Assembly: GCA_016191845.1 (NCBI GenBank)
Contig: JACPVF010000013.1
Span: 411,908-475,907, forward strand
DNA length: 64,000 nt
Reading direction: 5' to 3'
Origin: Chloroflexota bacterium
Lineage (GTDB): Bacteria; Chloroflexota; Anaerolineae; Anaerolineales; Villigracilaceae
The translations under genes and the position numbers were made by a program. How positions within the stretch are numbered: the first letter of the stretch is position 1; each line of letters begins with the position of its first letter. Positions 58,436 through 64,000 of this stretch are shown piece by piece. A model generated the notes under the pieces. That model did not search any database. It worked only from the letters and a program-made list of their open reading frames with translations, and was not told where the DNA came from.

Positions 58436-58568
58436 GGATTTGACGGTCCGCCCGCTGCGCTGACCCTTCGGCGTGGGCGTAGATCATGGTGGTCTTTACG
58501 TCCCATCGGCTTTGCGCAAGACAGCCTTGTGCCGAGATTTCCTGCACGGTGCGGATACCGTATCGTTT
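58436..58568 (-). pseudogene. decayed integron-integrase C-terminus
   Basis: Minus-strand frame reads RYGIRTVQE, then about 12 altered residues, then WDVKTTMIYAHAEGSAQRADRQIPPL. This matches the last catalytic block of IntI/Xer tyrosine recombinases (GYDIRTVQELLGHxDVKTTMIYTHVL), including the nucleophile Tyr, but the LLGH segment is scrambled and the upstream part is gone. GC-rich like the chromosome. Its position and direction are those of the intI gene that would own the array to the right. Confidence 0.75.
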
Positions 58569-58601
58569 TGTTGGGGCGGCAGGGTTTAGGCTGTCATTCT
58601 G

Positions 58602-58631
58602 TTGTCGTTTTGGGTGACGAGGGCTTATAAT
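58602..58631 (+). promoter_or_regulatory. candidate cassette promoter (Pc)
   Basis: TTGTCG (58602-58607), 18-nt spacer, TATAAT (58626-58631), reading into the cassettes from the edge of the decayed integrase. Confidence 0.5.
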
Positions 58632-58645
58632 TTATGCATCCGTAC

Positions 58646-58728
58646 ATAAGCTATTATACCGAACAGTTCGGTATATCACGCCCCACGGGGGGATATAACC
58701 GAATGGTTCAGCCTAAGCGTAGTTAGGC
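58646..58728 (+). other. candidate integron attachment region (attI-like) with first core site
   Basis: Contains the perfect palindrome ATACCGAAC-A-GTTCGGTAT (58646-58664), a related ACCGAATGGTTC, and GCCTAA-GCGTAG-TTAGGC (58711-58728). The last is a simple inverted core site ending in GTTAGGC (58722-58728), where the first cassette would join. Confidence 0.6.
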
Positions 58729-58779: not shown

Positions 58780-59280
58780 ATGTCGGATGAAAAAATTGTC
58801 AAGTTGAAACTCAAAACATCTCATGTGGAAATAGATTATGAAGGTAGTGAAGAATTTTTGCGTTCTGAACTTCTTAGTCTAATTACCGAAGTAGCAGAAA
58901 TTCATAGAGAAAACCCACCCATAGGAATTCCACAGAGAGTTGATGCGTCTAAGGGTAACGCCACTGGCGAGGCACAATCAACAATAAACCTATCTATGAA
59001 ATCAATAGCAGCAAAATTAAGCATTGAAACTGGAACTGATTTAGCGCTCGCTGCATGTGCATATCTTGCAATAGTAAAAGGGCTTGACACATTTAATCGA
59101 AAAGATATTCTTGAATCGATGAAAAGTGCTGCTAATTTTTATAAGCAAACCTACCGAAGCAACCTAAGTTCTTATCTTGATGCGCTTATCAAAGATGGAA
59201 AACTTCTTCATCAGGCGAATGAAGTTTACGCACTACAAGCACAAGTAAAGAATGAAATCGAGGCAAAACTTGGTTACTAA
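58780..59280 (+). CDS. cassette 1, gene 1: unknown protein
   Basis: 166 residues, AT-rich, CGGAGG 7 nt before the ATG. N-terminal beta part (KLKLKTSHVEIDYEGSEEFLRSELLSL) and a helical C-terminal part with an HTH-like look (FNRKDILESMKSAANFYKQTYRSNLSSYLDALIKDGKL). Overlaps the HEPN gene by 29 nt, so they form one unit: partner or antitoxin is a reasonable guess. No known family. Confidence 0.75.
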   Translation: MSDEKIVKLKLKTSHVEIDYEGSEEFLRSELLSLITEVAEIHRENPPIGIPQRVDASKGNATGEAQSTINLSMKSIAAKLSIETGTDLALAACAYLAIVKGLDTFNRKDILESMKSAANFYKQTYRSNLSSYLDALIKDGKLLHQANEVYALQAQVKNEIEAKLGY

Positions 59281-59995
59281 AGAAGAACTCATAAATTATC
59301 TCGCATCTGACGAAATGGCACGCCGAGATAAAATAATGATTATTCTTGCCTCGACAGGAAGCCCTTTACAGATAGCCGATATAAAAAGCATTGCGTCAGA
59401 CGCGGGCTTGCGCGAAATTGAAAAATGGAATGTGGCTGACGCGCTAGGAAAAGCTAAAGGTCTGATAACCAAGGTGAAAAATGGCTGGATACTCACATCA
59501 AAAGGTTCAGCATATGTAAATCAAGAATTACTGCATCATCCATTATCTACAAAACAAGCCGCAAAGAGTCTTAGACATTTATTGTCTAACATTAAGAGTC
59601 TAGAATCAAAAAAATTTGTTGAAGAAGCAATTCAATGTTTAGAAGTGGACGCTTATAAAGCGGCTGTTGTTTTTTCATGGATTGGTGCTATTTCTGTTTT
59701 ATACGACCATGTAATTGCATTTCGGCTTACTGATTTCAATAACGAGGCAAAAAACCGCGATGCAAAATGGAAAACAGCTTCAACTCGCGACGACTTAGCA
59801 AGAATGAAAGAGTCAGATTTTCTAGACATACTTGCTACGCTTTCAATTCTTGGAAAAAACGTCAAAGAACATCTAAAAAACACCTGTCTAAATTTGCGGA
59901 ATTCCTGTGGGCATCCAAGTTCACTAATTGTTGGTAAACATAATGTTGAAGCTCATATTGAGTTTTTAATTCAAAACGTTTTTGCTGTTTACTAA
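59252..59995 (+). CDS. cassette 1, gene 2: HEPN-type protein with N-terminal winged helix
   Basis: 247 residues. N-terminal winged-helix-like region (IMIILASTGSPLQIADIKSIASDAGL...ADALGKAKGLITKVKNGWILTSKG), then a helical domain ending in CLNLRNSCGHPSSLIVGKHNVEAHIEFLI. R216-x4-H221 (RNSCGH) is the HEPN RNase signature. The start may instead be TTG 59270. HEPN proteins are common toxins and anti-phage effectors, so this pair may be a defence or addiction module carried by the cassette. Confidence 0.7.
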   Translation: MKSRQNLVTKEELINYLASDEMARRDKIMIILASTGSPLQIADIKSIASDAGLREIEKWNVADALGKAKGLITKVKNGWILTSKGSAYVNQELLHHPLSTKQAAKSLRHLLSNIKSLESKKFVEEAIQCLEVDAYKAAVVFSWIGAISVLYDHVIAFRLTDFNNEAKNRDAKWKTASTRDDLARMKESDFLDILATLSILGKNVKEHLKNTCLNLRNSCGHPSSLIVGKHNVEAHIEFLIQNVFAVY

Positions 59996-60001
59996 AACCG
60001 C

Positions 60002-60131
60002 GCCTAACAAAGCGTGCACCTGACGCTGGGGATTCTGCGCACATCCCAAGCAGTTTTCTACGCCTTAGCCTTTTTCTGGTCGGACGGCTTCGCCGTCCCC
60101 ACCCCAGCGCAGGTAACGCAAACCGTTAGGC
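60002..60131 (+). other. attC site 1
   Basis: GCCTAAC (60002-60008) ... GTTAGGC (60125-60131), 130 bp. The outer arms pair over about 25 bases: GCGTGCACCTGACGCTGGGG with CCCCAGCGCAGGTAACGC, with unpaired bases near the ends. The inner stem is GACGGC/GCCGTC. Orientation RYYYAAC then GTTRRRY gives a plus-strand array. Confidence 0.92.
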
Positions 60132-60173
60132 GCTTCGCGTAAAGTACAAAAACATAACAAGAAGGAGGATGTT

Positions 60174-61346
60174 ATGCCACGAATTCCGTATGGAACAAAA
60201 TATACAGTCAAAGCATCAGGTTCTATATTGAAACCTGTTGTTTGTGAAAACTGTGGATGTGAATATTTCTATCAGATAAAACATCAAACCGATGGCTCTG
60301 CAACTAATGTGCTTTGGTTAAATAAACAGGGAGCAATTAGAAACGCTGAAAATAACGCGAACCAGAATCTTGAAAGTTATCTCAAAAAGGCTGTCCGTAA
60401 TTATCATTGTCCAGATTGTGGATTTTATCAAGCAGATATGATTCAACGCATGAAAAATACAATCTGGCAAAGAGCGATTATTTTCGGCATCATTGCATTT
60501 GTTATAGTTGCTGTTGTGACATCATCGAGTTCATCTGTTATGTTTTACGCTATAACAGCAGGAATAATTACGAGCATTGCTTTTTTGAGTCCGTTGGCAA
60601 ACTTCAATCCCAACGCTGACGCACGTACAAGAATTAATCAAAAGTTTTCAGAAAGTTACCCAGTAGTGAAAAAGGAAAAATCTATGAAAACATGCCCATA
60701 TTGCGCCGAGCAAATTCAAGATAAAGCCATTGTTTGCAGATATTGTGGAAGAGATATTGTTGGTGACGTTGGAAAAACAGCAACGTCTCAAAAAAAAATT
60801 GAAAACATTGAATCTAAAATTGATTTAAAGGAATACGAAACTCTTCTAAAGGCATGGGGTGACAGTTACTCAAAATCACCTGAAAACTTTAAAAGTGCAG
60901 TTACCCTTTCCTTGAGTGGAATTCTTGACTACCTTACGCCAGTTTTTACAAAGTTTCTCGAATCAAAATTGATAAATGATGAAGAACACAAGGTTATGGT
61001 AACCAGAATCGGCGGCTACACGACTCAATGGGGCATAATTTGTTATCATGTTGGAGTTGAGCATGGAAGAAAAAATATAGTGACAGAAAAAGTTCCTTAT
61101 TATTTATATGCAGTCAATCAACCTTTAGAGAGTTTGATAAAATCTTTTACAGACGGGGCGGCTAAAAAAGGTGTATTGGAACATACTTTTTATGAGGAAT
61201 GGGCATCAGGTTTATCCAAAGTGTTTATTGAAAAATCTATAGAACTTGCAAATGCTGGTTTTGCGGGCGGTCTTGTTATAGACCCAGAGCATATCAAATC
61301 ACTATCATTTGCAAACACAATTACAAGTTTGGTGAGAATTGAATAG
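60174..61346 (+). CDS. cassette 2: zinc-ribbon membrane protein of unknown function
   Basis: 390 residues, AAGGAGG upstream. A split N-terminal zinc ribbon (CENCGCEY ... CPDCGFY), two membrane helices ([38 protein letters not shown]), a second zinc ribbon ([21 protein letters not shown]), then a helical soluble region (about 220-390) without a known motif. The AT-rich composition and codon use differ from the chromosome. Confidence 0.75.
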
Positions 61347-61394: not shown

Positions 61395-61524
61395 GCCTAA
61401 CAAAGCGTGCACCCGACGTGTGGGAGTCTGCGCGGTTTAGGAGCATTTTTCTGGCTTCGAGTTTTTTCCTGCTCCCAAGCAGAGTCCACGCCCGCCCACA
61501 CGCGGGTAACGCAAACCGTTGGAC
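61395..61524 (+). other. attC site 2
   Basis: GCCTAAC (61395-61401) ... GTTGGAC (61518-61524), 130 bp. GCGTGCACCCGACGTGTGGG pairs with CCCACACGCGGGTAACGC. Inner TAGGAGCA / TGCTCC stem. Closely related ends to attC 1. Confidence 0.9.
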
Positions 61525-61563: not shown

Positions 61564-61893
61564 ATGGAAGAACAATCATCTGAGGAAAAAGAGTTGAAAG
61601 ACAACGTTCAGCAGCTTTCGCCTTCACCATCCAGAGGTGATCGTCTTGATCAGTTGAGTGCCAAATATCCTTACTTAACAGCATATATTGGTTTTATCTT
61701 GATGAGTATTCTCGCCGGAATTATTGCCGGCATTGTTTTCATTGTTCCCCAAATGATTTACTCCACAATTAGAGGGCAACAAATGTTTTCCCCTTGGACT
61801 CCAACATTCCAAGCCGTGTTACAGGTTATTCTTGCTTTTTATTCGTTCAAGTACGTGGTAAATAAGCACATCCTACCGAATGTTACCAAGTAA
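61564..61893 (+). CDS. cassette 3: small membrane protein
   Basis: 109 residues. Acidic N-terminus, two to three hydrophobic segments (YLTAYIGFILMSILAGIIAGIVFIVP; FQAVLQVILAFYSFKYVV). Weak GAGGTTGAAATA before the ATG. Unknown function. The 61894-62045 interval contains no other gene. Confidence 0.6.
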   Translation: MEEQSSEEKELKDNVQQLSPSPSRGDRLDQLSAKYPYLTAYIGFILMSILAGIIAGIVFIVPQMIYSTIRGQQMFSPWTPTFQAVLQVILAFYSFKYVVNKHILPNVTK

Positions 61894-62045: not shown

Positions 62046-62175
62046 GCCCAACACAGCGTGCACCCGACTGGTGGGACTCTGCGCGCTTTCAAGCAGTTTG
62101 CACGGCTTGAGATTGGTTCCGATAAAATAGTGTTATCTCCTCCCGCCCACCAGCGGGTAACGCAAGCCGTTGGGC
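62046..62175 (+). other. attC site 3
   Basis: GCCCAAC (62046-62052) ... GTTGGGC (62169-62175), 130 bp. GCGTGCACCCGACTGGTGGG pairs with CCCACCAGCGGGTAACGC. As after attC 1, GCGCTTCGCGTAAA follows. Confidence 0.92.
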
Positions 62176-62202
62176 GCTTCGCGTAAACCAAAGCAACAGC
62201 CA

Positions 62203-63177
62203 CTAATCATCTAATGGAGATTCGACTTCATGACTCCCACGTTGAAGGACTTGGGTGTAAATCATAGTTGTTTTGATATCTTTGTGACCAAGAAGTTCTT
62301 GAACTGTTCGGATATCATATCCATTTTGGAGGAGGTGAGCAGCAAAGGAGTGACGAAACGTATGAGGGGTAACTCTTTTATTTATCTTTGCTTCCTGAGT
62401 AGCTTTCCGAATGCTTTTTTGAAGTCCACTTTCGTGAACATGATGGCGTTTTTCTGTTTTAGTAATTGGGTCAATGGAAAGAGTCGGAGCTGGAAATACA
62501 TATTGCCAGCTCCAACTTTTTGACATTGATGAATAATTCATCAATGAAGAAGGTAAGGTTGTTTCACCAAATCCTAGCATGAGATCTCTTTCGTGAATTG
62601 CCTTTACTGTCTTTAAGTGTGACTGGAGAGATTCGACGACAATTTTTGGGAGAATGGTAAGGCGATCTCCATCACCTTTACTTTCATGAATATGGATTTG
62701 ACGGTTTTTGAAATCAATATCCTTTACACGGAGCATTAAACATTCCATTACCCGTAAACCTCCACCATAAAGTAATTGAGTCATAAGTTTGGATACACCA
62801 TCCAAGTTTTTGATAACAGCCCGTATTTCTTGTGGTGTGAGAATAACAGGTAGTGATTTAAGTTGTCCAGGACGAATTGTGTCGGTAGGGATTTGGAGAT
62901 CAATTAATAGGACATATTTATAAAGAAATATAACGGCACTCAATGCCTGATTTTGAGTTGATGGTGAGACCATTCTTTCGCTGGCTAGGTGAGAAATAAA
63001 TGCTTGCACTTCTGAAACACCCATCTCACGAGGATGTTTTTTGTTGTGAAACAATATATATTGCCGAATCCAATCTAAGTAGGTTTTCTCTGTTCGCGGC
63101 GAGTAATGTTTCTTTTGGATTACATCGCGAACTTGATCAAGAAGTTTTTTGCAATCTTGTTTTGATGAATTGTCCAT
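62203..63177 (-). CDS. intI: integron integrase (IntI-type tyrosine recombinase), intact
   Basis: 324 residues. N-terminal SAM-like DNA-binding domain (KKHYSPRTEKTYLDWIRQYILFH) and catalytic residues R142 (GGLRVME), K167 (ESKGDGDR), H272-x-x-R275 (HTFRHSFA), H298 (LLGHKD), Y307 (MIYTQV). The IntI-specific insert is present (about 195-250: GFGETTLPSSLMN...WQYVFPAP...RHHVHES). AT-rich. It lies inside the cassette array, 27 bp after attC 3, facing back towards it. AAGGCGG upstream. No attI core (GTTRRRY) is visible in the 59 bp between it and the next gene. Confidence 0.93.
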   Translation of the reverse strand: MDNSSKQDCKKLLDQVRDVIQKKHYSPRTEKTYLDWIRQYILFHNKKHPREMGVSEVQAFISHLASERMVSPSTQNQALSAVIFLYKYVLLIDLQIPTDTIRPGQLKSLPVILTPQEIRAVIKNLDGVSKLMTQLLYGGGLRVMECLMLRVKDIDFKNRQIHIHESKGDGDRLTILPKIVVESLQSHLKTVKAIHERDLMLGFGETTLPSSLMNYSSMSKSWSWQYVFPAPTLSIDPITKTEKRHHVHESGLQKSIRKATQEAKINKRVTPHTFRHSFAAHLLQNGYDIRTVQELLGHKDIKTTMIYTQVLQRGSHEVESPLDD

Positions 63178-63236
63178 GTTTGCCGCCTTTTTGTGTGATT
63201 ATAATAGGGAGACAGGTAATTGAAGTAAAGGAAATT

Positions 63237-63776
63237 ATGTATACTCTATCTTTTGAAAAATTTATAGACCCTGATTATTATCCTGATGACAAGATTGTTT
63301 TATATGTTGTTAGAGAAAAAGAGAATATATATTATGTTGGGATAAGTAAGACCAATGTTTGGTATCGCTGGTTTGGGGCAAATGGCAGAATGGTTAAGAA
63401 TGTCTATGACGATTGGATTTCATACGACTCAATAGGAAGCCATATTATTCAGAACATGCCAAATTCTTATAAATGGGATATTGATCTTTGGACTATCGAG
63501 GAAAGTAACCTGTTTTTAGATTCATCAAGCACAAACTTGAAAGATATTGAAAGTGAAATGATTTCGGCTATATTGCCAAGTATAAATTTTATTGGAAATT
63601 CGAGAGATTATCGTGATGAGTATAATGTCCACAAAGTAGATAAATATCTTGAATATATAAAGAGCCATCAAGAAAAGATTGTAAAACGAAGTAAAATCCG
63701 TACCGCGAAGAATGAGTTGAACCTTAGCGAGATGGATATGATGGAATTACCTCCAGAGGATGATATTCCATTCTAA
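63237..63776 (+). CDS. GIY-YIG-like nuclease-domain protein
   Basis: 179 residues, AAAGGA 5 nt before the ATG at 63237. IVLYVV (GIY) at 20-25, IYYVGIS (YIG) at 31-37, R44 in NVWYRWFG and the typical E...PSIN element (IESEMISAILPSINFIGNS). A basic C-terminal tail (KRSKIRTAKNEL) follows. Divergent from intI. It could be a cassette gene, a homing-type nuclease or a repair enzyme. AT-rich. Confidence 0.7.
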   Translation: MYTLSFEKFIDPDYYPDDKIVLYVVREKENIYYVGISKTNVWYRWFGANGRMVKNVYDDWISYDSIGSHIIQNMPNSYKWDIDLWTIEESNLFLDSSSTNLKDIESEMISAILPSINFIGNSRDYRDEYNVHKVDKYLEYIKSHQEKIVKRSKIRTAKNELNLSEMDMMELPPEDDIPF

Positions 63777-63859
63777 GTTAATCATCATGACCAAAGGAAG
63801 TCTAACTTGAACGTCTGTGCGTCTTTTTTCCAGCAATCGTGTTTTGCACAACAGCACGC

Positions 63860-63876
63860 GCCCAACAAAGCGTGCA
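63860..63876 (+). other. 5' part of attC site 4, interrupted
   Basis: GCCCAACAAAGCGTGCA matches the first arm of attC 1-3, then the sequence changes at 63877 and no GTTRRRY arm is seen before the transposase end. Confidence 0.75.
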
Positions 63877-63933
63877 GCAACTGTCTTGAAAGTCAAGGAA
63901 AAAGAACCCCTTTAATGGAAAGAACAGTCCGTC

Positions 63934-64000
63934 TCAGGCAGCGGCCATCTGCCTGAACGGAGTTTTATCTCGCATCATGGCATTCAAGATGGTCAGGAAC
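63934..64000 (-). mobile_element. IS110-family-like transposase, C-terminal end (rest outside window)
   Basis: Minus frame ends FLTILNAMMRDKTPFRQMAAA and TGA at 63934. This resembles the usual IS110/IS1111 C-terminus (MRKFLTILNAM...). The coding region runs off the window. The 57 bp between the break in attC 4 and the stop codon would be one IS end. IS1111-type members of this family are known to target attC sites. Confidence 0.65.

What the first reader, a model, noticed from the sequence alone, without database searches (positions are those of the whole stretch)
62176..63876. Intact integron integrase located between two attC sites, as if it were itself a cassette
intI lies on the minus strand 27 bp after attC 3, paired with a divergent GIY-YIG-like gene, and the unit ends at attC 4. 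No GTTRRRY attI core is visible in the 59-bp intergenic gap. So either a second integron platform was joined head-on to the first array, or an integrase gene became a mobile cassette. The integrase is AT-rich like the cassettes, unlike the decayed GC-rich one at 58436-58568. The resident array could thus be run in trans by a transferred integrase.
Basis: inference. Interest (0 to 1): 0.85.

Follow-up and report, generated by a model that had tools for sequence, protein, structure and literature searches.

The report
Integron integrase riding as a cassette
An intact integron integrase gene lies between two cassette recombination sites, where a gene cassette would, and a 95% identical unit that begins at the same base stands alone at a chromosomal site in a related genus, so this integrase is likely carried, and possibly moved, as a cassette of its own.

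Summary
An intact integron integrase (324 aa; TIGR02249, 409 bits) ends 27 bp after a complete attC (attC3). A divergent GIY-YIG-type gene lies 59 bp from its start, there is no attI core, and the unit reaches the left arm of attC4. The contig then ends inside an IS110-type element that interrupts attC4. The left array is a separate, conventional integron: it keeps its own attI, 90% identical to that of a second, intact integron of the same genome, plus an intI remnant. The decisive new evidence is a second copy (95% nt over 1,519 bp) in another genus of the family. There it stands outside any array, and homology begins exactly at the same G^TTGGGC crossover base. Platform relatives (57-67%) have an attI-type core upstream in 23 of 25 loci; both cassette copies lack it. 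The cassette integrases form one clade on a long stem among platform integrases, keep the catalytic motifs and are under purifying selection. Distant GIY-YIG relatives sit beside other tyrosine recombinases. So 'an integrase became a cassette' is favoured over 'two integrons fused'. Self-mobility is inferred: neither copy seen has an intact attC 3' half, and no recombination was tested.

The parts
58436..58600 (-). decayed remnant of the left platform's own intI (C-terminal and a few N-terminal codons)
   Evidence: tblastn: C15 IntI 292-315 at 52% (E 6.5e-6) and 1-12; the cassette IntI matches the same piece slightly less well (48%, E 8.7e-5)
58561..58728 (+). attI region of the left array, core GTTAGGC at 58722-58728
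   Evidence: 148 of 164 bases identical to the C15 attI region up to the core
60002..60131 (+). attC1, end of cassette 1 (ORFs 58780-59280 and 59252-59995)
61395..61524 (+). attC2, end of cassette 2 (zinc-ribbon ORF 60174-61346)
62046..62175 (+). attC3, end of cassette 3 (ORF 61564-61893); its right core GTTGGGC (62169-62175) is the start of cassette 4
62170..63876 (+). cassette 4, the intI-bearing unit, as far as it can be read; leading core GTTGGGC and attC4 R'' GCCCAAC are complementary in 7 of 7 bases
   Evidence: sequence; 95% identical copy with the same left end in L042
62203..63177 (-). intact integron integrase, 324 aa
   Evidence: TIGR02249 409 bits, PF00589, PF13495; dN/dS 0.165 against the L042 copy
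63237..63776 (+). predicted GIY-YIG nuclease, 179 aa
   Evidence: invariant Y23, Y33, G35, R44, E105, N117 in 28 sequences; model aligned best to UvrC and I-TevI GIY-YIG domains
63860..63876 (+). left arm of attC4
63877..64000 (.). end of an IS110-type element inserted in attC4; contig end
   Evidence: 124 of 124 bases identical to C15:1-124; complete homologous element with IS110 transposase in L269

Best explanation
The unit has the boundaries of a gene cassette, carries an intact integron integrase gene and a predicted GIY-YIG nuclease gene, and would likely move itself by attC recombination. Shown: it runs from the G^TTGGGC crossover of attC3 to the left arm of attC4; a 95% identical copy begins at the same base at a chromosomal place in another genus; it lacks the attI that its platform relatives have; its genes are under purifying selection. 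Inferred: the integrase recombines the flanking attC cores, releases a circle with intI, the GIY-YIG gene and attC, and inserts it at an attI, an attC or a chromosomal attG-like site. Inferred: the GIY-YIG protein likely helps by cutting DNA at the target or at a recombination intermediate.
For: Exact shared left end in two contexts: 1,440 of 1,519 bases identical, starting at GTTGGGC; in L042 the bases before it are chromosomal, 92% identical to G146 over 350 columns, and that match ends within 3 bp of the crossover. Leading core and attC4 R'' pair in 7 of 7 bases, as for a circularised cassette (sequence). attI-type core upstream in 23 of 25 distinct platform loci (16 in the strict form TAGTTRRRY), in 0 of 24 3' flanks, in 4 of 25 reversed upstream stretches, and in 0 of the 2 cassette copies. 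An attC on the 3' side of intI within 400 bp in 2 of 95 locus records, this one at 31 bp. One clade of 5 cassette-type IntIs, support 100/100, stem 0.55, among platform IntIs. dN/dS 0.165 for intI, 0.22 for the GIY-YIG gene. 120 of 130 conserved columns kept, catalytic motifs included. In G113 the cassette IntI is the only one of 16 matches over the family cut-off. Distant GIY-YIG relatives have a tyrosine recombinase directly upstream at 9 of 10 places in the family.
Against: No recombination was observed. Neither readable copy has a whole attC at its right end: in the window an IS sits in it, in L042 the 3' half is missing and the rest does not fold (z -0.1). The L042 right flank is unique (1 of 57 genomes), so no complete empty site was shown, and the G146 sequence at the junction is not itself GTTRRRY. 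G113 also holds a truncated IntI near attC sites that could once have moved the unit, and G000 has an intact platform IntI. The integrase changed at ten otherwise conserved columns, so its specificity may differ. G113 is listed as 8% contaminated.
Confidence: 0.7

Rival explanations
1. Passenger cassette: the intI gene is cargo in a true cassette and is moved only by a resident platform integrase, not by its own product.
For: The genome has an intact platform integrase whose attI region is 90% identical to that of this array; ten conserved columns changed in the cassette integrase, on a long stem.
Against: Purifying selection on intI (dN/dS 0.165), catalytic motifs intact; in G113 no other integron integrase passes the family cut-off.
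Confidence: 0.17
2. Two integrons were fused: a second platform (intI, lost attI, GIY-YIG as first cassette, attC4) was joined to the end of the left array by ordinary recombination.
For: Order and strand of intI and the GIY-YIG gene are those of a platform with a first cassette.
Against: The same left end, base for base, at a different place in another genus; no attI, unlike 23 of 25 platform loci; leading core matches attC4 R'' in 7 of 7 bases.
Confidence: 0.08
3. Assembly chimera: attC3 and the intI unit were joined wrongly in a draft assembly.
For: Draft genome in 18 contigs with attC arms near several contig ends.
Against: An independent assembly (G113) has the unit with the same first base in unique sequence.
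Confidence: 0.03

Closest known systems
Chromosomal integron platform (intI, attI, cassettes)
   Same: Integrase of the same family (TIGR02249), nested among Chloroflexota platform integrases
   Different: No attI, 3' end against an attC, ends at cassette boundaries
Integron gene cassette
   Same: Bounded by crossover cores, own attC arm, AT-rich like its neighbours
   Different: Carries the integrase itself plus a second, divergent gene; usual cassettes carry one gene and no integrase (recalled; also the abstract of PMC1382264 as listed)
Cassettes inserted at chromosomal attG sites (cited in PMC12901181, passages read)
   Same: The L042 copy sits alone in the chromosome with its left end at G^TT
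   Different: There the integrase acts in trans; here the inserted cassette encodes one. The L042 target is known from one junction only
IS1111-type elements that target attC (PMC11187229, passages read)
   Same: An IS110-family element lies in attC4 and in another attC of G113
   Different: A later insertion, not the finding itself; its subgroup was not determined
Tyrosine recombinase plus GIY-YIG gene pairs of the same bacterial family (found here)
   Same: Related GIY-YIG protein (30-35% to the window's) beside a tyrosine recombinase
   Different: The recombinase is not an IntI, the genes run in the same direction, some places have a second recombinase

Membership tests
Integron integrase (IntI) | Family score over the curated cut-off, full length | tested here: met
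   TIGR02249 409.4 against 265, residues 12-323
Integron integrase (IntI) | Catalytic motifs kept | tested here: met
   GLR, PHTFRHS, LLGHKD and TTMIY motifs aligned with platform IntIs
Integron integrase (IntI) | IntI-specific insert for attC binding, conserved form | tested here: inconclusive
   Insert present but changed (PSSLMNYSSMSKSW against PYALxxKYxxAxKEW; A218 to M)
Integron platform | attI beside intI | tested here: not met
   No GTTRRRY on the + strand until 63716; 23 of 25 platform loci have a core
Gene cassette | Left end at an attC crossover | tested here: met
   Starts at G^TTGGGC of attC3; same base in L042
Gene cassette | Own attC at the right end | tested here: inconclusive
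   Left arm present in both copies; the rest is interrupted by an IS (window) or missing (L042)
Gene cassette | Excised circle and insertion by an integrase | not testable with these tools
   needs an assay
GIY-YIG nuclease | Conserved Y, Y-G, R, E, N (set recalled) | tested here: met
   Y23, Y33, G35, R44, E105, N117 invariant in 28 sequences
GIY-YIG nuclease | GIY-YIG fold or curated family score | tested here: inconclusive
GIY-YIG nuclease | DNA cleavage | not testable with these tools
   needs an assay

The most novel reading that the evidence does not exclude
A lineage of integron integrase has left its platform for good and lives as an autonomous cassette: a minimal mobile element of intI, a GIY-YIG helper nuclease and one attC, which spreads between genera through other integrons' arrays and through chromosomal sites, and can bring integrase activity to arrays whose own integrase has decayed.
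Probability: 0.5. Interest if true: 0.93.

Novelty: new variant of a known kind. Interest (0 to 1): 0.84.

Why it matters
Integrons are described as a fixed integrase with attI that captures cassettes unable to move by themselves. A cassette that encodes the integrase removes that division: it would be a self-sufficient mobile element built on attC recombination, a way for integrase activity to reach arrays that lost theirs, and a possible way in which new integrons are founded. It also offers a natural integrase freed from attI, and a GIY-YIG protein that pairs with two kinds of tyrosine recombinase.

Tried and rejected
Empty site: the left flank of the L042 copy was compared with relatives but its right flank was found in 1 of 57 genomes of the genus, G113 itself, so no complete empty site was shown. 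A first reading that G113 carries cassettes scattered singly was dropped: several of its attC sites are at contig ends or followed by inserted elements. A claim that the cassette copy is G113's only integrase was narrowed to the only one over the cut-off. My first two attC detectors were too crude or too strict for other taxa; the third saw a normal-side attC in only 16 of 95 records, so it undercounts. Rfam: no match. First GIY-YIG model poor, pLDDT 46; PDB sequence search without a relevant match; Foldseek no match at E 0.001 or better, and none of the 50 rows shown is named GIY-YIG. A 21-residue piece of the IS end found no plasmid match. The plasmid search (stopped at its 5,000-record limit; best 55.1%) and the viral scan (31 loci; full-length matches 48-52%) gave no close relative. 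Divergence between the two genera was not measured; the protein chosen has no close match in G000 (best 41%). An order-wide search for more copies did not complete.

Full report
What is in the sequence. The window is the last 64 kb of contig C13 of a 4.63-Mb draft genome in 18 contigs. Its kin in the same family include genomes recorded as Chloroflexi and Anaerolineales. From 58.4 kb the contig ends in an integron: an intI remnant, an attI region, three cassettes with complete attC sites (60002-60131, 61395-61524, 62046-62175), then a fourth unit. This unit starts at the crossover base of attC3 (62170) and holds an intact intI on the minus strand and a GIY-YIG-like gene on the plus strand, up to the left arm of attC4 (63860-63876). 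The integrase scores 409 bits to the integron integrase family against a cut-off of 265. attC left arms of this type occur 37 times in the genome with up to two mismatches, against 3 for the reversed pattern.

What the window end is. The last 124 bp are identical to the first 124 bp of contig C15, and in both contigs they follow the same attC arm. In a related genome, G113, a similar element (by eye) is complete: an IS110-family transposase (PF01548, PF02371) after GCGTGCA of an attC, with attC-like sequence resuming on the other side. So attC4 is interrupted by an IS, and the assembly stops at that repeat. IS elements that target attC are known (PMC11187229, passages).

The left array has its own attI. 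Window 58561-58724 is identical in 148 of 164 bases to the region upstream of the second intact integrase of this genome (C15:1817-2806, 57% identical to the cassette integrase), which has a normal layout. The remnant at 58436-58600 matches that integrase a little better than the cassette integrase. The left array could therefore be served by the C15 integrase.

The unit outside an array. A scan of 84,980 species genomes kept 80 of 144 relatives; one, L042, is 94% identical in protein, and the next full-length match is 57% (short pieces reach 80% over 45 residues). A search of 152 genomes of the family found IntI in 84 at E 1e-60, but apart from the window itself only G113, which holds L042's contig and belongs to another genus, above 70%. 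The two units agree in 1,440 of 1,519 bases, and the match starts exactly at GTTGGGC. In L042 the sequence before that core is chromosomal: 92% identical to G146 over 350 columns, the match ending within 3 bp of the crossover. The G146 bases that follow are not GTTRRRY. At the right, L042 keeps only the 5' half of an attC (no fold, z -0.1), and its right flank is unique. Insertion at an attG-like site thus rests on one junction. Two other attC sites of G113 are cut short in the same way (L253, L255).

Loss of attI. Of 48 locus records with a related IntI, 21 were set aside as short or duplicate. Of the 27 left, 2 are the cassette copies and 25 platform loci. An attI-type core lies within 330 bp upstream in 23 of 25 (16 in the strict form TAGTTRRRY), against 0 of 24 3' flanks and 4 of 25 reversed upstream stretches; the two cassette copies have none. 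In 95 locus records, some of them the same locus fetched twice, an attC on the 3' side of intI within 400 bp was found in 2: here at 31 bp, and L044 at 387 bp, not followed up. The same detector saw an attC on the normal side in only 16 of the 95, so it undercounts.

Phylogeny and selection. In a tree of 78 IntIs the five cassette-type proteins (window, L042, P0001-P0003) form one group (100/100) on a stem of 0.55 changes per column, within a supported group that also holds the platform integrases of G009, G016 and G118 (rooted at the midpoint). P0001-P0003 are called cassette-type from sequence alone. In the protein search only the best 120 of 7,998 were listed: 97, 94 and 93%, then 70% or less. 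dN/dS between the two copies is 0.165 for intI and 0.22 for the GIY-YIG gene, 0.13 over its first 150 codons. 120 of 130 columns conserved in 73 other IntIs are kept; ten changed, among them A218 to M and H309 to Q.

Mechanism. Shown: cassette-type left end, intact integrase, no attI, a second location, purifying selection. Inferred: the integrase recombines the attC cores around it, so the cassette carries its own means of excision and insertion. Untested: recombination itself, the role of the GIY-YIG protein, the direction of transfer. Both readable copies are damaged at the attC 3' side, so these copies may now be stuck.

Novelty. Ten searches of the held library (eight of them aimed at this question) listed no paper whose title or abstract start describes an integrase gene as a cassette. 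The library lacks most subscription papers, so this is weak evidence. Papers were seen as listings except PMC12772301, PMC2426708, PMC10500605 and PMC11187229 (passages) and PMC12901181 (outline with abstract, and passages). PMC2426708 reports more than one integrase gene in a fifth of integron bacteria (abstract passage), so two integrases as such are ordinary; an attI-less integrase carried as a cassette is a new variant.

Noticed in passing
63877-64000; L008:1-141; L269:985-2200; L251: An IS110-family element lies in attC left arms, right after GCGTGCA, in two arrays of this genome and in two contigs of G113.
   Followed up: partly
L249, L254, L256, L258 (G113): Four attC sites on different contigs are followed by nearly the same sequence GTTGAAACTGTCGAA(A/T)AAGT, most at contig ends: perhaps another element that inserts at the attC end.
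   Followed up: no
L227-L234, L236, L239: GIY-YIG-type genes directly downstream of non-IntI tyrosine recombinases, some with a second recombinase: an apparently undescribed mobile module of this bacterial family.
   Followed up: partly
L267 (G113:C91): A truncated intI (N-terminal part) lies upstream of a small attC array, on the same strand as the attC sites; a 50-residue IntI C-terminus is at the start of the same contig.
   Followed up: partly
L044: A cyanobacterial intI locus with a possible attC 387 bp beyond the intI 3' end.
   Followed up: no
60125-60145, 62169-62188, L038:4509, L042:7011: Cassettes 2 and 4, one cassette of contig C3 and the L042 unit share the leader GTTRRRC(G)(C/T)TTCGC right after the crossover core.
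   Followed up: no
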